NCBI GenBank assembly: GCA_024655945.1
Contig: JANLFK010000018.1
Location: forward strand, 1-59,038
Origin: a candidate division KSB1 bacterium
Lineage (GTDB): Bacteria > Zhuqueibacterota > Zhuqueibacteria > JANLFK01 > Oleimicrobiaceae
Length of the DNA: 59,038 nucleotides
Reading direction: 5' to 3'
Below the pieces are notes generated by a model. That model made no database searches. It saw only the letters and a program-made list of their open reading frames with translations, and had not been told where the DNA came from. Shown in pieces: positions 7,935 through 31,619 of this stretch (position 1 is its first letter; every line of letters begins with the position of its first letter). Position numbers and translations under genes: made by a program.

Positions 7935-7996
7935 CATGGGCCAGTGTTCTGAGAGAAAGAAGCTTCTGCGGCATCGAGGAATCTACCTGGGCTGAC

Positions 7997-9214
7997 GTGA
8001 ACGTCCTCTATCTTTCGCAATACTTCCCCCCGGAGGTGGGGGCCACGCAGAATCGCGCCTACGAGATGGCGACGAACTTGGTGCGCATGGGGCACAAGGT
8101 GACGGTCCTGACCGAGGTGCCGAACCACCCGAAGGGGGTCATTCACGCGGGCTACCGGGGCAAATTAGCGGTGCGCGAAAAGCTTGAGGGCGTAGAGGTC
8201 TTGCGCGTCTGGGTGATGACTTCGCCGCACAAGACCTTTGCCACGCGCCTGGCGTTCTACTTGTCGTTTGCCGTGATGGCCTCGCTGGCAGGCATGCTTG
8301 AGCGCAAGCGTTACGACGTGGTCTTTGCCACCTCGCCGCCTCTCTTCGCCGGGGCAGCGGGCCTGATCATCGCGCGTACTCGCCGCACGCGGTTTGTCTT
8401 CGAGGTGCGGGATGTGTGGCCACTCTCGGCAGTGGAGCTGGGCGAGATACGCAGCCGTGCCTATGCCCGCTTGGCCGAAAAGTTGGAGATGGCCCTTTAC
8501 CGGAACGCGCTGGCTGTGCCGGTGGTGACCAGAGGCATCCTCGACGTGCTCCGTGCCCGAGGCGTTGCTGAGGAGAAGCTGGTCTTCATCCCTAACGGCA
8601 CGAACACCGAACTGTTTTATGACCGTGGCCAGCGGGTGCGCACCGAGTGGGGCCTGAGGGACGAATTCGTGGTCATGTATGCCGGCATCTTCGGCATTGC
8701 CCAGGGGATGGAAGTGCTATGTCAAGCGGCCCGTCTCTTGAAGCAGCAGTCCCACATCCGCTTTGTCCTTGTCGGCGAGGGACCGATCAAGGAGCGCGTG
8801 CGCGCCTTGGCGCAGCAGTGGCGGCTTGCCAATCTGCTTCTCCTGGACGAGGTGCCCCGTGAGCGCATTCCGGAGTTCATCTCGGCAGCAGATGCCTGCA
8901 TCGTGCCGCTGAAGAAGAAGCCACTCTTCACGGGCGCCTTGCCCTCCAAGATGTTCGACGCCTGGGCCTGCAGCAGGCCGGTGCTCTTGGCGGTGGACGG
9001 GGAAGCACGCCGCGTGCTGGAAGAGGCTCAGGGGGGAGTCTTTGTGGAACCCGAGGATGCCGAGGCCCTTGCGCGGGCGATCGTGCGCCTGGCAAAAGAC
9101 CGTAGTCTGGCGCGCCGCTTGGGGGCTAACGGCAGGCGCTACGCGGAGCGGCATTTTTCGCGCCGCGCCCAGGCCGAGAGGCTGGCACACCTTTTGGAGG
9201 CGCTTGTGCGATGA
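7997..9214 (+). CDS. GT4-family glycosyltransferase (WbuB-like)
   Basis: A 405-residue retaining glycosyltransferase of the GT-B fold, family GT4, like the WbuB enzymes of O-antigen and capsule synthesis. The N-terminal domain begins YLSQYFPPEVGATQNR, the usual WbuB opening, and has FEVRDVWPLS near residue 135. The C-terminal nucleotide-sugar domain has LPSKMFDAWACSRPVL followed by the family's conserved acidic segment. The frame is open upstream, but GTG 7997 places the conserved opening at the start and avoids overlap with the protease gene. Its last four bases overlap the next gene's ATG, so it is probably co-translated with the phosphoglycosyltransferase. Sugar specificity cannot be read. 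Confidence 0.85.
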   Translation: MNVLYLSQYFPPEVGATQNRAYEMATNLVRMGHKVTVLTEVPNHPKGVIHAGYRGKLAVREKLEGVEVLRVWVMTSPHKTFATRLAFYLSFAVMASLAGMLERKRYDVVFATSPPLFAGAAGLIIARTRRTRFVFEVRDVWPLSAVELGEIRSRAYARLAEKLEMALYRNALAVPVVTRGILDVLRARGVAEEKLVFIPNGTNTELFYDRGQRVRTEWGLRDEFVVMYAGIFGIAQGMEVLCQAARLLKQQSHIRFVLVGEGPIKERVRALAQQWRLANLLLLDEVPRERIPEFISAADACIVPLKKKPLFTGALPSKMFDAWACSRPVLLAVDGEARRVLEEAQGGVFVEPEDAEALARAIVRLAKDRSLARRLGANGRRYAERHFSRRAQAERLAHLLEALVR

Positions 9215-16002: not shown

Positions 16003-18795
16003 ATGAATCCGGGAACGATTGTGCGCTGCCGCAATCGCGATTGGGTGCTGCTACCCAGCGATGGGGAGGTGATTCGCTTGCGACCGCTTGCGGGGGCCAC
16101 CGAGGAGGTGGTGGCCATTCATCGCGCCTTGAGCAACGAGGTTGCCTCCGCCATACCGGAAGAGCGAGTTGAGCCGTCGCTCTTCCCGCCGCCGACCCAG
16201 GCAGACCTGAGCGACGCCGCAAGCGCCCACCTGCTCTGACAGGCTACCCGCCTGGCGCTGCGCGAGGGGGCCACCCCCTTGCGCTCCTTGGGCCGCATCT
16301 CCATTCGGCCGCGTGTCTATCAGTTCGTGCCGCTGCTCATGGCCCTGCGCCTGGACCCGGTGCGCTTTTTCATCGCCGATGACGTAGGCGTGGGCAAAAC
16401 CATCGAGGCCTTGCTCGTGGCCCGCGCACTGCGCGACCGCGGCGCAATTGGCAGTTTCTGTGTGCTTTGCCGGCCGTATTTGTGTGAGCACTGGGAGGCG
16501 GAACTGCGCACGAAATTCAACCTCGAGGCAGCAGTCGTTCGTTCCGGGACGGTGGGGAGCCTGGAGCGGCGCGTGCCACGGGGCAGGACTATCTACGAGC
16601 ACTTCCCAATTCTCGTCATCAGCCTCGATTGGGTGAAGAGCGACCGCAACAAGCACCTCTTCCTGCGCTTCTGCCCAGACCTGGTTATCGTCGACGAGGT
16701 GCACGGTGCCGCCGAGGCCGCCGGACGCAGCCGCAACCAGCAGGAGCGCCACCGCCTCCTGTGTGAAATTGCCGAAGATCCCCGGCGCCACCTTATCCTG
16801 CTGACCGCCACACCGCACAGCGGCATCGAAGAGGCGTTCCGCTCGCTCCTCGGCCTGCTGAGACCGGAGTTTCGCCACTGGAACCTGTCCGAGCTCTCCG
16901 AACCGCAGCGCAGCGAGCTTGCTAAGCACTTTGTGCAGCGCACCCGCAAGGACATTGAACAAGGCTGGGACGGTCAGCGCTGCTTCCCAGGGCGCGATTC
17001 CTCGGACTTGACCTACCAGCTTTCGGCCCCTTATCGCCAGCTTTTTACCCAGACGTACCACTTCTGTTCCGAGATCGTGCGCAGCGGTGCGAACTTGGAA
17101 CAGCTTAGGCGCAGGGTACGGTATTGGGCGGCGTTGGCCCTTCTCCGTTGCGTGATGTCCAGCCCGGCGGCAGCGCTGGCCGCTCTGGAGGCGCGTGCCA
17201 AGAGACAGGGGGAGAGGGAACCAGACAGCGAAGAAGAGGGCGAATTCAGCCCATCGGTGTTCGAATCCGACGTCGACCGCACCGACGATGAGGTTCCGAT
17301 CCCGCCAGTGGCGGCAGCGGAACAGACGCTCCAGGAGGATGAACGTCGCAAACTGCGCGAGCTTAGCCGCCTTGCCCAGGCTCTGCACAGCTCGCAAGAG
17401 GACACCAAGCTCGCCCGCTGCCAGGAGGCTGTAGGCCGCCTCGTCGCCGAAGGTTTTCACCCCATCGTCTGGTGCCGTTATGTGGCCACCGCCGAGTATG
17501 TGGGCGAGCACCTGCGCAAGGTCCTGCCTGAGGAAGTGCAGGTGGTGACCATCACCGGCCGCATCGGCGACGACGAGCGCGAGGCACGCATTAGGGAAAT
17601 CGAGCCCGATCGCCCGCGCGTTCTGGTAGCCACAGACTGCCTGAGTGAAGGGATCAACCTCCAAGACAAGTTCAGCGCGGTGATGCACTATGATTTGCCC
17701 TGGAACCCCAACCGGCTGGAACAGCGAGAGGGCCGGGTGGACCGCTATGGCCAGACCTGCCCGCGGGTGAAAGCCATCCGCTTCTACGGCCAGGACAATC
17801 CGGTTGACGGCGTCCTTATCGACGTGCTGCTGAACAAGGCGCGCCAAATCCGCCAGACCCTCGGCACGCACGTCCCGGTGCCGGAGGAGAGCGAGAGCGT
17901 CATCGAGGCAGTGCTGAATGCCCTCTTTTTCCGGCGAAGGGCACTGGACAAGCCCGCGCAACTGCGGCTTTTCGAGCTCGAGGACGTAACCGCCCTGCAC
18001 CATACATGGGACCAGGAGGCCGAACGAGAGCGCATCAATCGCACGCGCTTTGCTCAGCGGGCGCTGAAGCCGCAGGAGGTGCAAAGGGAACTGGAGGCCA
18101 CCGATAGCGTCCTGGGTGACCCCGAAGCGGTGCGTACCTTCGTGCTCGCCGCTGCCCAGCGCCTCGGTCTGGCCATTGCCGAGGACAAGAGGGTGCCTGA
18201 CGTGTTCCGCATCAGCATTGCCCCAGAGAGCACGCAGAGATTGCCGGACGCCATCCGTTTTGCCCTGCCCGAGCCGCCCAAAGGCAGCACCCGCTCCAGA
18301 CCGCAATAGGTGGTGAGCTTCACCTCGCCGACACCCGAAGGCGCCGAATACCTTGGCGGCAACCACCCCTTTGTGGCAGCATTGGCCCGCTACTTAGTGG
18401 AAGAGGCCCTGGGCAGACAGGGCGCCGCCGCCGCTGCCCGCTGCGGCGTAATGCGTGCAGGGGCAGTCTCTCACCTGACGAACCTCTTGCTCCTCCGCGC
18501 GCGCTACCTCCTTGAACAGACCGACAGAGCGCCGCTGTTGTCGGAAGAAGTCCTGGTTCTCGGCTATCGTGCGGGCGGCACCAAAGAGCCGCAATGGCGG
18601 GACAACAACGACGCGCTGCGGCTGTTGGTCGAGGCCAGGCCCGATGCCAACGTGCCCATGGCGGAGAAGCGCGAGCTGGTGCGTGCTGCTCTGGCCCAGA
18701 TAGGCGAGTGGCCAAAAGAAGGTGCCGATCTGGAGCAAGCCAGCGCAATCCAGCAGCATGTGGGCCAGGTGCTCACCCTGCGCGCCCAGGCATGA
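16003..18795 (+). pseudogene. drmD: DrmD-like SNF2 helicase of a DISARM-type system, two in-frame stops
   Basis: Three consecutive segments in one reading frame form a single SNF2 helicase of about 930 codons. Residues 1-78 (IVRCRNRDWVLLPSD, VVAIHRAL) match the DrmD N-terminus. TGA at 16237-16239 interrupts it; reading resumes as RLALREGATPLRSLGRI. Walker A DDVGVGKT starts at codon 127, DEVH at 231, and motif VI QREGRVDRYGQT at 574. A second stop, TAG at 18307-18309, precedes VSFTSPTPEGAEYLGGNHPFVAALARYL at the normal C-terminus. The first is consistent with a CGA-to-TGA transition at a conserved Arg. Known DrmD proteins remodel DNA in class 1 DISARM. Programmed readthrough is possible but unsupported by any visible signal. 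Confidence 0.82.
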
Positions 18796-20536
18796 GCAGA
18801 AAGCCACAAGCGTATTCTACACGCCGCAGGGCAACCGTGCGCCGCGCGTTCGTCGTGAAGCCGTTTTTGCCACCGGACCTTCTGGGACTGTTGGTCTTGC
18901 AACCCTTGGTGAGGTCATGAGAGCATTTCCTGCCATTCGCATCGAGGGTGGACTCTTCGGCCCGGACGTCTTGGAGCAGCTCCTGGCCGGCGAGCTGCCC
19001 GGCCAGCGCCCTACTGATTTTGCCATTGGCCGACGCCACCTCACCGATGAGATCGCCGCGGTGTTTGCCGATGCTCGCTCCCTGTGGGGCGTGTTCCAGC
19101 ACCGCCTGGAGCGGTTACCTTCGTCCGACTTGGGCACTTCTGTGACCCGCGACGCCTGGGTCATCCCCTTTCTGGGGCTCCTTGGCTACGAGCTCCGCTA
19201 CAACGCTCGCGCCTATGACGTGGACGGCCTCACCTTTGCCATTTCGCATCGGGCTGGCGAAAGCGAGGAGTCGCCGCCGGTGCACATCGTCGGCGCGCGC
19301 CAGGAATTGGGCCGGCTGGCCCCCGCCGGCCGCCCGCGCCTGGCGCCGCACTCCCTGGTGCAGGAGTTCCTCAACCGCACCGACCACCTGTGGGGCATCG
19401 TCACCAACGGCCTGACCCTGCGCCTGCTGCGCGACAGCACTTATGTGCGCCGCCAGGCCTACATCGAGTTCGACATGGCCGCCATTCTGGAGGAGCAGCA
19501 CTTTCAAGATTTTGTGGCCCTCTACCGGCTGCTCCACCGCTCCAGGCTGCCCGAGAGTTTTGCCGATACCGACCAGTGCCTGCTCGAGCAGTACTACCGC
19601 TACTCCGTTGAACAGGGCGGTCGGGTGCGCGAGCGTCTCCGCGACGGCGTGGAGCAGTGCCTCACACGTCTAGCCGAGGGCTTTTTGAGGCACCCCCGCA
19701 GTGCGCGGCTCAGGGAACTGCTGTCGCCAGAGTACCATGGTAGCAACAAACTCCTCCCGCAGGACCTGTACCGGCAACTGCTCCGCCTCGTCTATCGCTT
19801 CCTCTTTCTCCTGGTTTCCGAAGACCGGGGCCTGATCAGCTCTGACCCCCTCTACTGCGAGCACTATGGCGTGGCCCGGCTCCGCCAACTGGTGGATCGA
19901 CGAAGCTGATACACGGAAGACGACGACCTCTGGTGCTGCCTGCGCGTGCTCTGGAAGGTCCTCTCCGACGAGAAGTTGGCCGGTCTCCTCGGTGCTGCCC
20001 CTCTCAACGGGGAGTTGTTCGCCGAGCTGGACCTCGACGCCGCAACCATCAGCAATCGCGACCTGCTGGAGGCCTTCCGCTTCCTGGCCTACTACCAGGA
20101 GAGCGCATCGAGCCCACCGCGCCGCGTCAACTATGGCGCGCTGGATACCGAAGAACTCGGCTCGGTCTATGAGAGTTTGCTCGATTACTACCCGGCCGTG
20201 ACCTCCGATGCCGCCGGGCGGCCGAGCTTCGAACTGAGGCCCGGCTCGGAGCGTAAATCCACCGGCTCCTACTACACGGCGCCAGAACTGGTGGCAGAAC
20301 TCGTCCGTTCGGCGCTGGAACCGGTGCTGGCAGAGCGATTGAAGCAGGCCAAGACTCGTGACGACAAAGAAGAAGCCGTTCTCTCCCTGCGGGTGCTCGA
20401 TCCTGCGTGTGGCTCTGGCCACTTTCTGCTGGCCGCCGCCCGCCGCTTAGGGAAGGAACTGGCGCGCATCCGCACCGGCGAGCAGGAGCCGACGCCGGAA
20501 CAGGTGCGGCCTGCCACCCGCGACGTCATCGCCCGC

Positions 20537-20568
<32 letters not shown>

Positions 20569-21165
20569 CGTAGAGCTCTGCCGCTTGGCCCTCTGGTTAG
20601 AAGCCATTGCCCGGGTATGCCGCTCACCTTCCTCGGCCACCGCATTCGCTGTGGCGACTCACTTGTGGGTATGATCGACTTGGCACGCCTCAAAGAAGGG
20701 GTGCCGGACGAGGCGTATAGGCCGCTCTCCGGCGATGACCGCCAGGTGGCGCGCCAGGCGGCGCGGAGCAACCGCAACGCGCGGCAGGTGCATGAGCAGC
20801 AACTCGAGACGGCCTTGGACGACGGCCTGGGCCAGGAGCTGCAGGCCTATGCGATGGAGAGTAGCGAGCTGGCCAAGGTGAGCCAGGACTCGCTGGCGCG
20901 GGTACAGAGCGTCGAACAAATCTACCAGAATATGCGCGGCGGGGGCTCGTCGTACGAACGCCTGAAAAAGGCTGCCGACCTGTGGACGGCCGCGTTCTTC
21001 ACGCCGCTGACCAAAGAAAACGTGACGCGTATCGCCATCACGCGTTACGTTCGCCAATGCATGGAGAACCCGCAGACGCCGGACGGCCGGGTGACTGGTG
21101 GGGCTGAGGGGCTGGCCACCGAACACGCCTTCTTCCACTGGCCGCTGGAGTTTCCGGAGGTCTTT

Positions 21166-21206
21166 CTCCCCTCTCCCTCTGGCAGAGCGCCCCGGGGTGA
21201 GGGGGC
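21166..21206. repeat. Dispersed palindromic repeat, copy 1, in the methylase gene
   Basis: Begins CTCCCCTCTCCCTCTGGC and ends CGGGGTGAGGGGG. It inserts a Pro/Ser/Arg/Gly-rich stretch (PSPSGRAPRGEG) directly before the FDVILGNPPF motif without changing frame. It aligns over about 36 bp with copy 2. Confidence 0.6.
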
Positions 21207-21542
21207 CGGCTTCGATGTCATCCTCGGCAACCCGCCCTTCATGGGCGGGCTGCGCATCAGCGGCAACTTCGGCGAACCCTACCGCAAGTGGCTGGAATAT
21301 GCCTTTGCGCCCTTCGGCGGCACCGCCGACCTGTGCGCCGCCTTCTTCCGCCGCGCCTTCAGCCTGCTGCGCCGCGGCGGACGGCTGGGCATGATTGCCA
21401 CCAACACCCTCGGCCAGGGCGACACCCGCGAAAGCGGCCTGGCGGTCATCCTCCAACAGGGCGGGCAGATACACTTTGCCCAGCGCTTCGTCAAATGGCC
21501 CGGCCAGGCCAGCGTCGAAGTCAACCTCGTCGCCCTGAGTCG

Positions 21543-21581
21543 CCCCCCTCTCCCTTTGGGAGAGGGGCTGGGGGTGAGGGC
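21543..21581. repeat. Dispersed palindromic repeat, copy 2, with frameshift
   Basis: Contains CCCCTCTCCCTTTGGGAGAG, an almost perfect inverted repeat, followed by GGGGGTGAGGG. The methylase reading frame changes across this element: LVALSR on the left and APVLDCRLDD on the right are in different frames. Confidence 0.65.
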
Positions 21582-22618
21582 GCTCCCGTTCTCGACTGCC
21601 GCCTCGATGACCAGCCCGAACGCGAACCCGCCCGCCTGAAGCGCAACGAAGGCAAGGTATTTCAAGAGAGCATCGTATTGGGAATGGGTTTTGTGTTACA
21701 GCCTGAGGAAGCCGAACGATTACTTGCCCATAACCCGCGCCATGCCGACTGCCTCTTCCCCTACCTGAACGGCGAAGACCTCAACAGCCACCCGCAGCAG
21801 CAACCTTCGCGCTGGGTGATTAATTTTTTCGATTGGGATTTGGAACGCGCCCGCCAATACCCCGACCTGCTGCGCAGTGTGGAAGAGCGCGTGAAGCCAG
21901 AGCGCGAAAAACTGCGCGATTCCATTCCTACCCAAGCCAGACGCAAAAAATTCTGGTGGGAATATGGCTCTGCCGCAACACAACTCTATCAAGCCATCGC
22001 CCCCCTGCAGCGGGTACTGGTGCGAAGTCTTACGGGCGACAAACACGGAATGATATTTTTACCCAAGGGGCTTGTATATGACCAAACAATAATCGTTTTT
22101 GGTTTTGGCGATGATTACCACTTTGGATTATTGCAATCCAGTTTACACGAAACCTGGGTGTGGAAATACGGACCCACACTACGAACTGATAAACGTTATA
22201 CCGTAAGTGCCTGCTTCGAGACCTTCCCCTTCCCGCCTGCCGAATACGCCGCGCCCCATTTAGCCGCCCTGCTAGCGCGGCCGCCCTTCGCCCGCGCCGC
22301 GCAGGTTGGGGGCGCCTATCACGAACACCGCCGCCAGGTCATGCTGGCGCGGGGCTTGGGCCTCACCAAAACCTACAACCTGTTCCACAACCCCGCCTGC
22401 CAGGATGACGACATCCGCCGCCTGCGCGAACTGCACGCCGAAATGGACAACGCCATCCTTGCCTGCTACGGCTGGGAAGATTTAAACTTGCAGCACGACT
22501 TCTACCAGAACGAACGCGGGCAGGTGCGCTTCATGCCCTCGGCAGAGGCAAGGCGGGAGAGCATTGTGCCGTTGATCGAATTGAATCAGCAAATTGCAGC
22601 GCGTAGTAGGAGGCAACC

Positions 22619-24295
22619 ATGACTTGGCAAGACAACCTTACACCAGAACAACAACAGGCAGTGTCTTCAACTGGAGTGCATGCAAGACTTCTCGCCGGTC
22701 CAGGAACAGGCAAAACTCTCGTACTTACTCGCAGGATTCTCTATCTCGTGCATGACATAGGCGTAACTGCTAGCGACATTCTAACACTGACATTTACACG
22801 AGCTGCGGCTGCTGAGCTAAGACGGCGAATTACTAACGAGTTTGGTAATGGGGCAATGCCTCACATTTCTACATTGCACTCTTATGCCCTTAGTCTCATA
22901 CTACAGCGGGGAGCGCGCGGAAAGCTTCCTACCCCGATTCGCATCGCCGATGATTTCGAGGAACGTTTCATTATCGAAGAGGATTTAAAACACATCATGG
23001 GTCTTTCGCGTGTAACTGAGGCGCGTGAACTTCTAAACCAACTTTCTGCTGATTGGGAAAGGTTGATTGCGGATGCAGATGGTTACCGCGCTCCCAATCC
23101 ACAGTTCCATGGCGCATGGCAGGAACATAGGCAGATTTTTGGATATACCTTACGCGCAGAGCTGGTTTATCAGCTTAAGCACGCTCTTGAAGAAGGGATT
23201 GTCGGTATAGAGCAAAAACCCAAACACATTGTCGTTGATGAGTATCAGGATCTTGATCCATGTGACTTGGCAGTTAGCAAAGGCTTGACCGAACATGGTG
23301 CAGAGCTGTATGTAGCAGGAGATGATGACCAGAGCATATACGGATTTCGATATGCTGATCCAGAAGGCATTCGACGCTTTGACAAGGATTACACGCCCTC
23401 TGTCTCACTTGACCTCAAGGAATGCAAGCGGTGCGGCTCACAAATACTAGCTCTCGCTAATTACGTCGCTAATCAGGACCCCCGTCGTCTTCCCAAGACT
23501 ATTGCTCCAGCCGCCGAGGTGCCTTCAGGTGAAGTTCACATTCTCAATTTTGCTAACCAGAGTAGAGAAGCTGACGCGATCGCGCATATATGCCAATGGC
23601 TTGTGACAGAGCAGAATATTCAACCTGAGCAGATTCTGATTTAGCTCAGGAGTGACCGAAACCGCGTTTTCTCCGATCCTATCCGTAAAAAACTCGAACA
23701 GCTTGGAGTACCTGTAAGCATAGCAGTTGACCCACTTGAGCCCGTAAACAGCAAAGAAGGACGTCAGTTCCTGAGTGTTTTGCGTCTGACAGCCAACGAT
23801 AACGACCATCCCGCTTGGCGCACCCTGCTTATGTTACGAAGGAATAGCATAGGTGAAGAGAAGCTAAACACTCTCTATGCCTTACCTCGCAAGCAAGGTA
23901 AGAGATTTGCTGAGGCTATTTCTGCTGTAGTTTCCAATCCTGGTCTTCTGCCAGGATTTGGTCAATCATTTGTGCGAGAAGTGGAGAGCATACGACAAGC
24001 CGTCGCTGATGCCAAGACAACTGTCCAGTCTACCACTGGCCTGACAGATGCTATCAAGGAGATTGCTAACAAACACATTGCCAGCCAAGATGTGCGGCAA
24101 AAAGTGATAGCACTGTTTGAGCATGTTATCAATGCATATTCTGTCCGAGACATTATTGAACTTCTTCGCTCAATCAGTGTGTCCCTTGGTGATGCTGAGC
24201 AGGAACAACAAAGCAACGCTGTCAACATTATGACTATGCATCAAGCGAAGGGATTAACAGCTCAGGTAGTAATAGTTGTTGGTGCAGAGGAGGCC
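22619..24295 (+). pseudogene. UvrD/PcrA-superfamily helicase, in-frame stop and 3' truncation
   Basis: An SF1 helicase related to UvrD/Rep. Walker A GPGTGKT is at residues 27-33, LTFTRAAAAELRRR follows, then motif II DEYQD at 207-211 and motif III GDDDQSIYGFR. TAG at 23642-23644 replaces what should be a Leu in ILI-x-LRSDRN; the same frame continues for 200 codons to motif V TMHQAKGLTAQVVIVVGAEE. After about 24293 all similarity ends, so motif VI is missing. The start ATG 22619 has AGGAGG six bases upstream and overlaps the methylase stop. Base composition is visibly more AT-rich than the flanks, pointing to separate acquisition. It is probably a defence-system helicase rather than a repair enzyme. 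Confidence 0.82.
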
Positions 24296-25130
24296 CAGGA
24301 CGCCGCGCGCCTGGCGCTCTATCTCCGCCTTGCCGAGCCGAAACCGTTGCTTAGCATACTTCTGCTGCGTCCCGGATGTGCTTCCCATGAAGCTAAGCGG
24401 CAGGCGCTAGGCCCAGAGCGGCGGAGGCAGTCGCAAGACTCCTCGAGGACCAAAAGGGACAAGATCACGACCTTGCACTCAGAGCTGCTCAGCCTTTCGC
24501 ATGTGCTCAACCCGCTCCTCCGGCAAGAGCAAGGGCGGCAAAACCTACGATTCACCCCCCGCAGAGGAGCCGAGGGGGCCACCAGGGGCCCCGAGTGGCT
24601 GTACAACTGTGTGGCCCCTCCAGTGGGGGTCATGCACGGTGGCCTGGACGTGGGGGTACTTTGCCGACGGAAGGTGGAATCGCTGGCGGCAGGAGTAGCT
24701 GAAGTGGTGCCGCCGGCGGGCAGCACGCGGTTGTGCCCGGCTCCGTGCGCCTATTCTGCCGCCCGAATGTTGTTGCTCGCGGGGCTCTCACCAGGCGAAA
24801 ACCAGCCGCGGGCAATGCAAGGATCACGGCTCTTGGGAGGCGCGCGGCGGTACAGGTGGCCCTTGCTGGTCGGCACGACCTGGCAGGTTGCAGTGCCCGG
24901 CGGTCTTTTCGCGGCAGTTGGTTGGTGTTGGGCACAGGGCAGCTGCGGACAGTTGCCCTGTGGCTGACATCGGCAAGGCCCGGGGGACTGCGGGTGGTAC
25001 CCCCCTGCTGCGCCCTATGAGCGGGAAGGGCCGAGCGGTGAGCCACCCTTGCGGGCCTCCTGCTGATCTGGGACGGCTGACCAAAACGCCCGGGGAAGCA
25101 TCCAGGCGAGGGAGGTTCGCAGGCGGCAGA
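24296..25130. other. Region of lost helicase 3' end, no gene recognised
   Basis: GC-rich DNA following the truncated helicase. The frame stays open to 24967 but the translation no longer resembles any helicase and looks like a shadow frame. It may be the scar of a deletion or rearrangement. Confidence 0.5.
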
Positions 25131-25135
25131 TTTCT

Positions 25136-25181
25136 CCTTCCCAGAAGGAGAAAAGTGCTTGATATTCGCCTTCCAAGAAGG
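25136..25181. promoter_or_regulatory. Two 13-bp palindromes, likely operator pair
   Basis: CCTTCCCAGAAGG at 25136-25148 and CCTTCCAAGAAGG at 25169-25181 differ at one base and are 33 bp apart, about three helical turns. The first lies in a longer perfect inverted repeat with 10-bp arms (25131-25140 and 25144-25153) that includes an AAGGAG. They sit just before the DUF4143 ATPase. Repressor binding or an mRNA hairpin are both possible. Confidence 0.5.
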
Positions 25182-25194
25182 TAAATTTAGACCG

Positions 25195-26535
25195 ATGCGC
25201 TGGCAAGACACATCCTCCATCAGGGCGCGCCTGGCGCAAATGCTGAGCGATTCGTTGGTGGCGCCTTTGCCGGCGGCTACTCCGCGCCGGGTGCACACGC
25301 GGGTCTGGTTGCCCGGCAAGGCCACGGCGGTCATCGGCATGCGTCGGGCGGGCAAGACGACCTTTCTCCATCAGTTGCGGCGCGAACGCATGGAGCAAGG
25401 AGTGCCCCGCGAGCGCCTGCCCTACATCAACTTCGAGGACGAGCGGCTGGCCGGTATCGAAGCCAGCCGCCTGCACACGCTGGTTGAGGAGTACTATCGG
25501 CTGTTCCCCGCCTTCCGCGGCAGAGAGACGGTGAGTTGGTTCCTTGACGAGATCCACACGGTGCCTGGCTGGGAGCGTTTCGTGCGCCGACTCATCGATA
25601 CCGAAAAGGTGGAAATCTGTGTGAGCGGTTCATCGGCGGCACTGCTGAGTCGGGAAGTGGCCACAAGCATGCGCGGCCGCGGCTGGGAGGTGGTCATCTA
25701 TCCGTTCAGCTTCGCCGAGTACCTTTGTCACCATCAGCGCCCCGTGCCCAGTCGGTTGGACCTGTTGAGCTCTGTCGAGCGCTCTGAGCTTGACCATGCC
25801 TTGCGCGACTACCTGCGCGTTGGTGGTTTCCCCGAGGCGCAGGGGTTAGACGAGCCTGAGCGCTTTGCCCTGTTGCAGCAGTATGTGGACCTGGCCGTGC
25901 TCCGCGGCGTGATGGAGCGCCGTGGTCTGACGCAGGTGGTGGCCTTGCGCTGGCTGGTGCGGCACCTCTTGGGGAATCCGGGCGGGTCGTTCAGCGCGGA
26001 AAAGTTCTACCGCGACTTGAAATCACAAGGCATAGCGGTGTCGCGGGACACGCTGCACCAAATGGTCTCGTCGCTTGAGGATTGCTTTCTGGTGCGCATC
26101 TGCTGGCTGGACACCGCATCCGAGCGCCGGCGTATGGTGAACCCGCGCAAGGTCTATCCGGTGGACATGGGCCTGATTCCGGTCTTTGACCGCATGGGCA
26201 AAGCCAATGTCGGCCATGCACTGGAGACGGCAGTGAGAATTGAGTTGGAGCGCTGGGGGATGGAAGTGAGCTATGTGCGCACTGCCACTGGCGAGGAGGT
26301 AGATTTTGTGGCGCGCCGCCCCGGCGCCAAGCCCCATTTGATTCAGGTGTGCGCCGAACTGGCCAGTGCGGACACGGTGCAACGCGAGGTACAGGCATTG
26401 CAGGCTGCGGCCGCAGAGTACCCCGGGGCCAGTCTGCATCTGGTCACCCTTACCACCGACGCGCTGCCGGAGTTGCCTGCCCATGTTCAGGTTCATTCGG
26501 CAGCGCTGTGGTTGCTGGGCGAAATGCTTGGCTAA
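25195..26535 (+). CDS. AAA_14/DUF4143 family ATPase
   Basis: A 446-residue P-loop ATPase with C-terminal DUF4143 domain. Walker A is GMRRAGKT at residues 48-55; the Walker B-like segment is WFLDEIHTVPGWERFVRRL; SGSSAALLSREVATSMRGR is the family's sensor region. The DUF4143 part ends with a nuclease-like TGEEVDFVARR and LIQVCAELA, resembling a PD-(D/E)XK strand. ATG 25195 is chosen because upstream TTG 25159 would place a second palindrome inside the coding region; TTG 25159 does have AAGGAG eight bases upstream and remains possible. It is the only undamaged gene of the island. The helicase gene starts 9 bp downstream. Family function is unknown. Confidence 0.8.
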   Translation: MRWQDTSSIRARLAQMLSDSLVAPLPAATPRRVHTRVWLPGKATAVIGMRRAGKTTFLHQLRRERMEQGVPRERLPYINFEDERLAGIEASRLHTLVEEYYRLFPAFRGRETVSWFLDEIHTVPGWERFVRRLIDTEKVEICVSGSSAALLSREVATSMRGRGWEVVIYPFSFAEYLCHHQRPVPSRLDLLSSVERSELDHALRDYLRVGGFPEAQGLDEPERFALLQQYVDLAVLRGVMERRGLTQVVALRWLVRHLLGNPGGSFSAEKFYRDLKSQGIAVSRDTLHQMVSSLEDCFLVRICWLDTASERRRMVNPRKVYPVDMGLIPVFDRMGKANVGHALETAVRIELERWGMEVSYVRTATGEEVDFVARRPGAKPHLIQVCAELASADTVQREVQALQAAAAEYPGASLHLVTLTTDALPELPAHVQVHSAALWLLGEMLG

Positions 26536-26544
26536 GGAGAACTC

Positions 26545-29500
26545 ATGAACATCTTCGACCTTCATGAGGCGGTCCTGAGGGATTATCGTGACTTTGTCCG
26601 CTCGTTTCTGCTCATTGCGGACGCGCGGGCGCGCGCCTTTGTCGACGAGGCCTTTGACCGGGAAACGACCTTTTGGCCGGATCCGCTCGTGCAGGTGAGC
26701 CCGGCATACGCATCTGGGCCCACGGTGGACGAACTGCTGGCCGAGGGGTTGCTTGTGGCGGAAACCGCCCGCATCTTTCGCAACAAGGATGGTGCGCCAT
26801 TCCTGCTCTACCGCCATCAGGAGATGGCCATCCGCAAAGTACAACGGGGTGAAAGCATCGTGGTCACCAGCGGCACCGGTTCGGGCAAGACACTCTGCTA
26901 CTTCCTGCCGATCTTTGACAACCTGCTGCGGCAGGCGACTCGAGCTCCAGGAACGCCGGCGTTGGTCGTCTATCCCATGAACGCGTTGGTGAACTCCCAG
27001 CACGCCTCGCTGGAACGCCTCAAGGCCAAGTACGAAGAGCGCACTGGCCGGCGCTTTCCCCTCACCTTTGCCAAGTACACCGGCGAGACCCCCGATGACC
27101 AGCGCGAACAGATGCGCACGCAGCCGCCGCAAATTGTGCTCACCAACTATGTGATGGCAGAGCTGATGCTGGTGCGCCCAGAGGACGAGAGCTTGCTCCC
27201 TCGCGGAGGCGGTGCCCTGCGCTTCTTAGTGTTTGACGAATTGCACACTTATCGTGGCCGGCAAGGGGCGGATGTGGCCATGCTCATCCGACGCCTCAAG
27301 GAGCGTTGTGCAAGCACAAACCTGGTGCACGTAGGCACCAGCGCGACGATGGCAGCCCACCCGCAGGCCAGCCCCGAGGAGCGAAGGCAGGCCGTTGCTG
27401 ACTTTGCGACGCGATTCTTCGGGCATCCGTTCACTGCGGACAACATCGTGGAGGAGACGCTGGAGCCCTTTACGCCGGGTGGCCCACCTTCCGCAGAAGA
27501 GCTGAAGCGGCGCCTGGCCCAGGGCCAAGGCCTGACAGAAGACCTGGAGGCATTTCGCCGGGACCCGCTGGTCCGCTGGGTGGAATACGAGATGGGGTTG
27601 GAACCCCTGGTGGAGGGTGGCCTGCGGCGGCGCATGCCGAGCTCCTTGAAGCAGACCGCGGCGCGACTCGCCGCGCTCGTGGACGCGCCTCAGCAGATCT
27701 GCGAGCAGCAGTTGCGCCAGGTGTTCGCGCGTGGCGGCGACCTGGTGCGCAAAGGAGGGGGGCGAGCATTGGCTTTCAAGTTGCACCAGTTCCTCGGACA
27801 GGGGCGAACCGTGTACGCGACACTGCAGGGCGCTGACCGCCGCGCATTCTCCCTTGAGGGACAGATTCAGGCAAGCCAGGGCCGCCTCTTTGTGCCCATC
27901 AAGTTCTGTCGCCACTGCGGGCAGGACTACTACCATGTGCTGCGCACCGCGGACAGCTTCTTCCCTCACCCGGTGGGGATCGCCAGCGAGGACCAGGAGG
28001 GGAAGCCTGGTTTCTTGATGCTCGCGCCACAGGAAGACTGGAGCGAGGATCTGCTCCCCGAAGAGTGGCGTTACCCGAACGGCAGGCTGCGCCCCACCTG
28101 GAAGGAGCGAGTGCCAACCCCACTGTGGGTCTTCCCGGGTGGGTCCTTTTCCGTCACCGCGGTCCCTGGGGCCCAGAAGATGTGGTGGCAGGGGGGTGGT
28201 TTTTACCTCTGTCTGAGTTGCGGCGAGTTTTACACCGACCGAGAACGGGAGTTTACCAAGTTAGCAACCCTTTCCAGCGAGGCGCGCTCCAGCGCAACGA
28301 CGGTACTTGCCACTTCTCTGTTGCGCCATGCCGCACGCACAAAGGCCGCGCAGCAGAAGCTTCTCACCTTTACCGACAATCGGCAAGATGCCTCTCTGCA
28401 GGCGGGCCACTTCAACGATTTCGTGCAGGTAGGGCTCTTACAGGCCGCCTTGTACGCGCGCTGCGCAAGAGGAGCCCGCTGCGCTCCGACGAAGTAGCCG
28501 CGGCCGGGGTCCAGTGCTCCGGGCTGAGCATTCGCGACATTGCGCGCACACCGCAGTTGGAACCAGGGTCGCCGGCAGCGCGTGACGTCTGGGAGGTGTT
28601 TACTGATCTGACTGAATATCGCCTGTACGATGACCTGCGCCGTGGCTGGCGCGTGGTCCACCCGAATCTGGAGCAAGTGGGTCTGTTGCGCATCGAGTAT
28701 CGCGGGTTGCAAGAGCTGTGCAGAAGGCCGGAGCTGTGGGAGTTCAGTCTGGCAATGGCCGCGTCTACCCCGGAAGAGCGTGAGGCAGTGCTCCGACCGG
28801 TGCTGGATCAGTTGCGCCGCAAGTTGGCAATCAGGGCCAGTGTGCTGGACAGAGACCGCCAGCGGCGGCTGCGTACCCGTGCGGAACAGCACCTCAATGA
28901 GTTTTGGGGCCTGGACCCAGAGCTCGACGAATTGCAGCAGGCGAGGCGTTTTGTGCTGCCGGGCTCCTCAAAACGGCAGGTGGAGGGTTTTTGGCTGGGG
29001 GTGCGCAGCACAATCGGCCGTTTCTTGCGCGCCCAATTGCACCTCGACGGGCAGGCGTACGCCGACTTTATCGCCAAGCTCCTTGACCTGCTCGTTGCCC
29101 ATGGTCTGCTGGTCCGCTTGGACCCGGTGGACGACCACCAGTTCTTTCAGCTTGACGCGGCCTGCCTCATCTGGTGCTTGGGGGACGGCACACCGCCACC
29201 GCCGGATCCTATCTACGCCCGCCGTGCTCAAGGCGACTACTATCGTGAGGCGCGCTCCTTGGTTAACACCTTCTTCCAGCAGTTCTACCAACAAGAGGCG
29301 GCAGCGCTGGCTATGCTCCAGGCGAGGGAGCACACCGCGCAGGTGGTCAGGCCCGGCGAGCGAGAACGTCGAGAACGAAGGTTTCGCTGGGCAGAAGAGG
29401 ACAGGAAAGAAGCGCCCACGCTGGGCCGTCGTCTCCCCTACCTGGTCTGCTCGCCGACCATGGAGCTGGGCGTAGACATCGCCGACCTGGAGATTGTGCA

Positions 29501-31619
29501 TCTCAGAAACGTGCCGCCAACTCCCGCTAATTACGCGCAGCGCAGTGGTCGGGCCCGCAGACAGGGACAACCAGGCCTAATCCTCAGCTACTGCGGGGCC
29601 TTTAACACGCACGACCAGTACTTTTTCCACAGGCAGGCGGAAATGGTGGCCGGAAGCGTGCGGGCGCCCCGCCTGGACATCGCCAACGAAGCGCTGCTGA
29701 GATCTCACATCCACGCCCTCTGGCTTGGCTGCATCGGTCTGTCGCTGGGGAAATCCATCGAGTGCGTGATCGACATAGAGCAGCCGAACCTCCCGCTGGC
29801 GGAGAAGAAGGCGGCGCGGATCCGGCTCAGTATTACCGCTCGCGCCGATATCGCCGAACGAGTGCGTCGTATGGTCAGTGCCGACAGAGGGCTGTTAGCC
29901 ACATCCGGATGGTTTGATGACTCATGGATAGACAGGGTTCTTGAACAGGCGCCTGAAGCTTTCAACAGGGCATTCGACCGCTGGCGCGAGCTGTACAGAG
30001 CGGCCAGGTGCCAGCTTGAGGCCGCACGCATTGACGAAGACCGCGCCCGGACCGCAGAGGGCCAGGCACAGGCTCGCAGAAGGCAGGACGAGGCACGTCA
30101 CCAGCTGAATCTCCTTCTGCAGCGGGTGGTGGCGCGGGAAGAAGGAGACTTTTACCCCTACCGGTACCTGGCAAGCGAGGGCTTTCTGCCCGGCTACAAC
30201 TTCCCTGCCCTACCGGTGCGGGCCTGGGTGCCACGAGGGGAAGGGGAATTCATCGCGCGCCCGCGCTTTCTGGCCATCCGTGAGTTTGCCCCGAACAATG
30301 TGCTCTTTCATGAAGGCGCAAAATGGGAGGTGGTGGCCTTCCAGAGCCCGCCGGGAGGCATGGACGAGCGCAGGAGCCAGAAGCGCTTCTGCTACACCTG
30401 CGGCGCCTACTGTGATGACGACCTTGACCTCTGCCCCGTGTGCCACTCCAGGTTCGATGCACAGAACAGTCTGGTGGCCACCGTGCTGGAAATGCCCAAT
30501 GTGCGCACGCGTCGCCGCGAACGCATTACATCCGAAGAGGAGGAGCGACGTCGCCGCGGGTACAAACTGGAGGTTTTCTACCAGTTACCCATGCTCCCAG
30601 AGGGTTTGCGTTTCCTGCAGGCCGATGTAATAGCGGAGAACGAGACGTTGCTCCAACTCCTCTACGCGCCCGCAGCCACCCTCATGCGTATCAACCACGG
30701 GTGGTACGGTTCGGATCAACCTGGTTTTCTTGTAGACTTTGAGCCGGGCGAGGTGGTGTCAGCAAAGCCGGAGGAGAACGGGCAGCCGGCTCGTGTCCAC
30801 CGCGTGGAAAATGTTCGCCTGGGTGTGGTAACTACCCAAAATGCCTTGCTTGTGAAGCTGGTGCGCCCAGACCTCCAGGGCGACCCAGCACTGGAAGCAA
30901 CCCTCCAGTATGCGTTGGAACGAGGCATTGAACACGCTTATCAGTTGGAGGAGACGGAGCTCGGCGCGGAACGCATCGGACAGGGCGAGCACCGTTCCAT
31001 CCTACTCTACGAGGCCACAGAGGGGGGATGCGGAGTCCTGAGGCGCCTCGTGGAGGAGCAAACGGCCTTAGCGGAAGTGGCAGAAGAGGCGCTCGCACGC
31101 TGCCATTTCGGCCCAGATGGAAGCGACCAAAAGCCAGACTGCGTGGCCGCATGCTACCAATGCCTGCTCAGTTTCGACAATCAGCACGAGGCACTGCTGC
31201 TCGATCGACGGCGCATTCGAGAATTGCTTGTCCAATTGGCGGCCAGTCGCACGTTAGTGCGTGCCGGCGAGCGCTCGCGCGAGGAACAACTCGCCTGGCT
31301 TCGTTCCGTGACCGACGCGCGCTCAGACCTCGAACGCCGGTTCTTGGATGTACTGGCCTCCGAACGCCTGCGACTGCCGGACGAGGCGCAAAAGAGCATC
31401 GCCGCGCCACGTTGCATCGCGGATTTCTTCTTTCGACCCAACATCTGCGTGTTCGCTGACGGTTCCGTGCACGACGATCCGGTGCAAAGGGACCGGGATG
31501 ATGCGCTCCGAGCAGAGCTGCGGGCGCGGGGCTACCGGGTGGTGGTCATCCGCTACGATCGCGAAATCCGCGAGCAGATTAGCGAATACCCCGAAGTGTT
31601 CGGGCAGATTAGCCCTTAA
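26545..31619 (+). pseudogene. Giant DEAD helicase-DUF1998-endonuclease, frameshifted
   Basis: About 1,690 codons in two frames. Frame one: YRHQEMAI (Q-like), Walker A SGTGSGKT at 109-116, DELH at 231-234, GTSATM, and a cysteine pair region [11 protein letters not shown] one-base deletion in a GC repeat near 28457 moves the reading to the second frame ([12 protein letters not shown]). That continues with [16 protein letters not shown], a zinc ribbon CYTCGAYC...CPVCHSRF, and DUF1998 features ([22 protein letters not shown]). The last 100 residues ([33 protein letters not shown]) look like a Vsr/DUF559-type nuclease. Size and order resemble DruE of Druantia, and DrmA plus DrmB fused. AAGGAG precedes ATG 26545. 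Confidence 0.82.

What the first reader, a model, noticed from the sequence alone, without database searches (positions are those of the whole stretch)
16003..31619. Hybrid DISARM/Druantia-like defence island with an unusual membership
DrmD-like and DrmMI-like genes define class 1 DISARM, but the separate drmA, drmB and drmC genes are absent. In their place are a UvrD-like helicase, a DUF4143 ATPase and one giant DEAD-DUF1998 protein carrying a nuclease-like tail, of a size and order recalling DruE. The ATGA overlap of methylase and UvrD gene and the 9-bp ATPase-helicase gap suggest organised operons rather than chance neighbours.
Basis: partly seen in the sequence, partly recalled or inferred. 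Interest (0 to 1): 0.66.

Follow-up and report, generated by a model that had tools for sequence, protein, structure and literature searches.

The report
Decayed ARMADA antiviral system with cargo
This stretch is the broken remains of a recently described bacterial antivirus system (ARMADA Type I), with two extra genes lodged between its second and third core genes; that gap turns out to be a swap-in slot for extra defence genes in relatives from many phyla.

Summary
In detail: five co-directional genes at 16003-31619, four of them broken. The "hybrid of DISARM and Druantia" is a class already named. ARMADA (Bell et al. 2025, PMC12458937) is defined as a YprA/DruE-like helicase-nuclease plus the DrmD-like helicase and DrmMI/PglX-like methylase, a "missing link" between DISARM and Druantia. 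All three core genes are here. The ArmC tree places it in Type I (SH-aLRT 100), not Type II, and the Type II ArmD (RelE-UvrD) is absent. The other two genes are cargo, not core. The UvrD-like gene is low in G+C (48% against 63%), so probably foreign, and was not found in this position elsewhere. The DUF4143 ATPase sits directly upstream of armC in three other lineages too. New here: in 25 of 28 Type I loci with A-B-C order the armB-armC gap exceeds 500 bp and holds varied genes, several matching "embedded" defence candidates. Also new: a pair of palindromes about 33 bp apart lies upstream of many of the ATPase genes, including all four armC-linked ones. The window copy is dead or nearly so. 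Two congeneric genomes keep only deletion scars of the island at the same site.

The parts
16003..18795 (+). armA pseudogene: DrmD/BrxHII/DpdE-like SNF2 helicase, two in-frame stops (about 16237 and 18307)
   Evidence: G010 ArmA aligns 16003-18825 in one frame at 60% identity; translation shows the stops; PADLOC DpdE E 4.5e-143, DrmD E 1e-83
18905..22622 (+). armB pseudogene: DrmMI/PglX-like N6-adenine methylase with MmeI-type target recognition domain; one in-frame stop (about 19907), two frame changes (about 20.6 kb and 21.55-21.6 kb, the second at an inserted GC-rich palindromic repeat)
   Evidence: Three frames matched by G010 ArmB, translation, DNA, PADLOC DrmMI E 9e-107, Pfam MmeI_Mtase/Eco57I/MmeI_TRD
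22619..24298 (+). embedded cargo 1: GajB-like UvrD helicase, low G+C (48%, GC3 41%), one in-frame stop (about 23642), 3' end lost at a junction near 24290; no N-terminal RelE domain
   Evidence: PADLOC GajB 162 bits; composition and comparison with ArmD; sequence
25132..25187 (+). tandem palindromes (centres about 33 bp apart) overlapping a sigma70-like promoter (TTGATA-17-TAAATT), just upstream of the ATPase start
   Evidence: same layout upstream of related ATPase genes
25195..26535 (+). embedded cargo 2: AAA_14-DUF4143 ATPase (PADLOC PDC-S01), open reading frame intact
   Evidence: PADLOC PDC-S01 E 2.7e-90; Pfam AAA_14 and DUF4143; 69% identical to the ATPase at the same place in G010
26545..31619 (+). 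armC pseudogene: YprA-family DruE-like helicase (DEAD, Helicase_C, MZB/DUF1998) with C-terminal Vsr/DUF559-like nuclease; one frame change near 28.46 kb
   Evidence: G010 ArmC (1704 aa, one open frame) aligns 60% over 26527-28458 in one frame and 59% over 28359-31604 in another; Pfam; tree; nuclease tail

Best explanation
The island is a decayed ARMADA Type I anti-phage locus in armA-armB-[cargo]-armC order. When intact it would act like a restriction-modification system. ArmB marks self DNA by adenine methylation. ArmA (SNF2/RapA-like) and ArmC (YprA-family helicase with a Vsr-like nuclease tail) find and unwind unmarked invading DNA, and the ArmC tail cuts it, without killing the cell. The gap between armB and armC holds interchangeable extra defence genes, probably backups against phages that block the core. 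Here the cargo was a foreign UvrD helicase, now truncated, and a DUF4143 ATPase under its own tandem-palindrome promoter, which probably also drives armC. Shown: gene content, order, kinship, lesions, deletion scars, variable slot, operator-like palindromes. Inferred: the modification and cutting roles, the backup role of the cargo, and regulation by the ATPase.
For: Core trio found together in Thermus, cyanobacteria, Nocardioides, Deinococcus and tens of MAGs of many phyla. ArmC tree: window inside a Type I clade of 23 rows, SH-aLRT 100, apart from E. coli/Thermus/Allomeiothermus Type II and from DruE III; 66% identity to the nearest Type I ArmC, at most 30% to Type II and 26% to DruE III. 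ArmC ends after one Vsr-like domain, as described for Type I (PMC12458937). Type II ARMADA protects E. coli without cell death, and all four genes are needed (PMC12458937). Slot: armB-armC gap over 500 bp in 25 of 28 A-B-C loci, median 2150 bp, against 72 bp for armA-armB (Wilcoxon p 7e-8), and 38 bp for armC-armA in C-A-B loci. Contents: OLD/GajA-like, HEC-01A/B, GmrSD/HEC-05, DUF3644/PDC-S19, PD-(D/E)XK, Mrr_N, DUF3800, PDC-S01. ATPase directly before armC in the window, G010, L039 and L078. Decay: lesions in four genes; G001 keeps about 50 bp of the armA start and the armC tail, G002 the ATPase operator and the armC tail, at the same chromosomal site.
Against: Activity of Type I ARMADA is not tested in the paper read here; only Type II was. 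The slot statistics come from relatives picked by similarity to one ArmC and are not phylogenetically independent. UvrD in the slot was seen only in the window. A sequencing-error origin of single lesions cannot be excluded without reads, although flanking genes are open and the congeners carry deletions.
Confidence: 0.88

Rival explanations
1. It is class 1 DISARM with drmA/drmB/drmC fused or replaced.
For: DrmD-like and DrmMI-like genes are the two genes shared with class 1 DISARM.
Against: No DrmA/DrmB/DrmC proteins: the large helicase scores best with DruE (E 1e-50) and only weakly with DrmA (E 1e-10), is one polypeptide with a Vsr-like rather than PLD nuclease, and no PADLOC match occurs in ten flanking ORFs. 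The G010 ArmA score with the NCBIfam DrmD model, 334 bits, is below the 610-bit cut-off.
Confidence: 0.04
2. It is a Druantia variant (DruE plus accessory genes).
For: The large helicase matches DruE1-3 profiles best.
Against: No DruH/DruM/DruA-D partner found; only about 26% identity to E. coli DruE III, which falls outside the ARMADA rows in the tree. That outside placement rests on rooting with DruE and on long branches.
Confidence: 0.03
3. All five genes form one co-functional system, a new five-component ARMADA subtype in which the UvrD does the job of ArmD and the ATPase is a required partner.
For: Overlapping ATGA, short gaps, same strand; ATPase-armC pair in four lineages.
Against: UvrD is compositionally foreign, only 24% identical to E. 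coli ArmD, lacks RelE, and recurs in none of the loci examined; in G010 an OLD-family gene sits in its place. Close ArmC relatives lack the ATPase, and G048 has a 63-64% identical ATPase without ARMADA.
Confidence: 0.05

Closest known systems
ARMADA Type I (Bell et al. 2025, PMC12458937)
   Same: ArmA BrxHII/DrmD-like helicase, ArmB PglX-like methylase, ArmC YprA helicase with a single Vsr-type nuclease tail; ArmA-ArmB before ArmC is one of the two orders reported
   Different: Broken copy; UvrD and DUF4143 cargo between armB and armC. DUF4143 has no occurrence in that paper's text and no such slot is mentioned in the sections read
ARMADA Type II
   Same: A-B-C order and a GajB-like UvrD in the locus
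   Different: Type II UvrD (ArmD) follows armC and is fused to RelE; here it precedes armC, has no RelE and is only 24% identical to E. coli ArmD; ArmC lacks the Type II tail extension; the tree separates them
DISARM class 1
   Same: DrmD-like and DrmMI-like proteins
   Different: no drmA, drmB, drmC
Druantia (DruE)
   Same: ArmC is DruE-like in sequence and size
   Different: no other Druantia genes; nuclease type differs from the PLD domains of Druantia III
Hma / BREX-related systems with embedded backup effectors (PMC12839542; PADLOC HEC candidates)
   Same: Same idea, and in part the same families (HEC-01, HEC-05, GmrSD, OLD-TOPRIM), lodged inside a helicase-methylase defence operon
   Different: Core here has the YprA helicase ArmC instead of a DUF499 ATPase; DISARM, YprA and DUF1998 have no occurrence in that paper

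Membership tests
ARMADA | YprA-family helicase (RecA1/RecA2, DUF1998/MZB) in one polypeptide | tested here: met
   Pfam DEAD, Helicase_C, MZB; intact 1704-aa relative
ARMADA | BrxHII/DrmD-like helicase gene in the operon | tested here: met
ARMADA | PglX/DrmMI-like methyltransferase gene in the operon | tested here: met
ARMADA | C-terminal Vsr-type nuclease fused to the helicase | tested here: met
   Invariant E, D, DG and H motif; Pfam DUF559 for 10 of 12 members; PDB match to an endonuclease-like protein is weak, E 0.012
ARMADA | BrxA-like, beta-barrel ZBM and MarR-like inserts in ArmC | not tested
   No ArmC fold was predicted (the intact 1704-aa relative exceeds the 1200-aa limit; no fragment was tried)
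ARMADA Type I | ArmC falls in the Type I clade, apart from Type II | tested here: met
   SH-aLRT 100 for the Type I rows
ARMADA Type I | Anti-phage activity | not testable with these tools
   needs an intact homologue and phages
ARMADA Type II | ArmD: RelE-GajB fusion after armC | tested here: not met
   No such gene after 31619; the window UvrD has no RelE and is 24% identical to E. coli ArmD
DISARM class 1 | drmA, drmB, drmC | tested here: not met
Druantia | DruE with DruH, DruM-F-G or DruA-D | tested here: not met
Gabija | GajA next to GajB | tested here: not met
   No PADLOC GajA hit listed for the window proteins tested; a GajA/OLD-like gene occupies the slot in G010 instead. The 24299-25158 junction was translated but not profile-searched

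The most novel reading that the evidence does not exclude
ARMADA Type I loci carry a dedicated cargo slot between armB and armC that takes up interchangeable backup defence modules. In one set of lineages a DUF4143 ATPase, controlled by its own tandem-palindrome operator, is coupled to armC and regulates it, so that the nuclease is switched on only when the ATPase senses trouble.
Probability: 0.35. Interest if true: 0.62.

Novelty: new variant of a known kind. Interest (0 to 1): 0.42.

Why it matters
It confirms independently, from raw sequence, that the DISARM/Druantia intermediate class exists in another lineage, and shows how such a system dies (stops, frame changes, repeat insertion, then deletion to a scar). 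The armB-armC slot gives a place to look for new defence genes: several of its contents already match embedded candidates listed in PADLOC, and others match no Pfam family. The tandem operator of DUF4143 ATPases is a testable handle on a large family of unknown function.

Tried and rejected
MrfA/YprA repair helicase as identity of the large protein: rejected (DruE and ArmC relatives far closer). UvrD as a displaced ArmD: rejected. Viral contigs: no relative found. First automated operator scans failed or were blurred by a scoring fault and by mixed strand orientation; redone by hand with proper start codons. First 91-row tree joined long branches (DruE with a YprA protein); replaced by the 27-row tree. 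Reading the 24299-25158 junction in six frames gave nothing recognisable by eye; it was not searched against profiles.

Full report
WHAT IS THERE. Five genes lie head to tail on the + strand between 16003 and 31619 of the window (C18 of a 3.94-Mb genome): a DrmD/DpdE/BrxHII-like SNF2 helicase, a DrmMI/PglX-like N6 methylase with an MmeI-type target recognition domain, a GajB-like UvrD helicase, an AAA_14-DUF4143 ATPase (PADLOC PDC-S01), and a giant DEAD-MZB(DUF1998) helicase with a nuclease tail that scores best with DruE profiles. Ten flanking ORFs have no PADLOC match.

BROKEN GENES. Mapping intact homologues onto the window and translating it shows that the helicase gene has two in-frame stops, the methylase one stop and two frame changes (one at an inserted palindromic GC-rich repeat), the UvrD gene one stop and a lost 3' end, and the giant helicase one frame change. 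Only the ATPase is open throughout. Flanking genes have long open frames. In the two congeneric genomes held, the same chromosomal site carries only scars. G001 keeps the flank up to about 15870, about 50 bp around the armA start, and then the armC tail. G002 keeps the flank, 59 bp holding the ATPase operator, and then the armC tail. So the island was most likely present in the ancestor of the genus and is being lost by point lesions in one lineage and by deletion in two others.

WHICH SYSTEM. Intact 1700-aa relatives of the giant helicase lie next to the same helicase and methylase in Thermus, cyanobacteria, Nocardioides and Deinococcus plasmids and in MAGs of many phyla. This is the trio that Bell et al. 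(2025; PMC12458937) named ARMADA: BrxHII-like ArmA, PglX-like ArmB and YprA-like ArmC, ArmC being most similar to Druantia DruE while ArmA and ArmB are shared with class 1 DISARM. In a 27-row tree the window ArmC lies inside Type I (SH-aLRT 100), apart from E. coli, Thermus and Allomeiothermus Type II and from E. coli DruE III. Its tail is one Vsr/DUF559-like domain with invariant E, D, DG and H residues, without the extension seen in E. coli Type II. The PDB profile match for the tail is only weak (E 0.012).

CORE AND CARGO. The UvrD gene has 48% G+C and GC3 41%, against 63% and 66-77% in its neighbours. It starts on the stop of armB, lacks the RelE domain of Type II ArmD, and matches E. coli ArmD at only 24%. 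No other ARMADA locus examined has it. In G010 the same place holds an OLD-family AAA-TOPRIM gene. The DUF4143 ATPase precedes armC in G010 (69% identity), in an Acidobacteria MAG (L039) and in a Kapabacteria MAG (L078), with a different gene between armB and the ATPase each time (OLD, an unidentified 285-aa ORF, DUF3644). It is not an obligate partner: G048 has a 63-64% identical copy without ARMADA. Across 28 Type I loci of A-B-C order the armB-armC gap exceeds 500 bp in 25, with median 2150 bp against 72 bp for armA-armB (Wilcoxon p 7e-8); leaving out cyanobacteria gives p 9e-5; in 21 loci of C-A-B order the armC-armA gap is 38 bp. These loci were chosen by similarity and share ancestry, so the p values are descriptive. 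The gap contents include families already listed as candidates embedded in Hma or other systems: HEC-01A/B (E 6e-152 and 5e-59), GmrSD/HEC-05, PDC-S19, PDC-S01 and OLD/GajA. The reading of HEC as Hma-embedded candidates is from my own knowledge. A similar layer of backup effectors is described for BREX and BREX-related (Hma) systems (PMC12839542), where DISARM, YprA and DUF1998 are not mentioned.

THE OPERATOR. Just upstream of the ATPase start (25195) two palindromes with centres about 33 bp apart, TTCTCCTTCCCAGAAGGAGAA and TTCGCCTTCCAAGAAGGTAAA, overlap a promoter-like TTGATA-17-TAAATT. The same spacing, with differing sequence, precedes the ATPases of G010, L039, L078 and G048 (33 bp), L143 and L145 (34 bp) and the distant L025 (32 bp). 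The window and seven of nine relatives beat 95% or more of shuffles; L142 and L144 do not, and the G002 scar keeps only a weakened form. This suggests self-regulation by the ATPase. Because the ATPase and armC are 9 bp apart in the window, the operator probably also controls armC. This is inferred, not shown.

MECHANISM. Best reading: ArmB methylates self DNA; ArmA and ArmC act on unmarked DNA; the ArmC tail cuts. Type II ARMADA acts without cell death and needs all four genes (PMC12458937). For Type I this is inferred by kinship. In the window the system cannot work as read.

VERDICT. Observation confirmed; interpretation partly supported; a broken member of ARMADA Type I with unusual cargo. 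The new parts are the variable armB-armC slot and the tandem operator of the DUF4143 ATPases.

Noticed in passing
window 25132-25187: Tandem palindromes with centres about 33 bp apart, overlapping a promoter upstream of the DUF4143 ATPase; the same spacing with other sequences precedes several related ATPase genes (L023, L039, L078, L141, L143, L145, L025), including ones unrelated to ARMADA.
   Followed up: partly
L031 (G002) about 6400-8200 and L033/L034 (G001): Deletion scars of the same island in two congeneric genomes at the same chromosomal site, with different breakpoints.
   Followed up: yes
window 21540-21585: GC-rich palindromic repeat (CCCCTCTCCCTTTGGGAGAGGGGCTGGGGGTGAGGG type) inserted in armB at a frame change; a similar stretch near 21180.
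   Followed up: partly
L023 9136-9300 (G010): After the OLD gene and before the ATPase lies a short stretch that reads like the C-terminal end of a second, different ArmB methylase, a sign of past gene exchange in the slot.
   Followed up: no
window 24299-25158: GC-rich stretch of unknown origin between the truncated UvrD gene and the ATPase operator; no recognisable protein by eye in six frames.
   Followed up: partly
L021 1645-27942 (Nocardioides plasmid pNOCA01): DISARM drmA/drmB, an ARMADA Type I trio in C-A-B order and an McrBC-like pair lie side by side on one conjugative plasmid.
   Followed up: no
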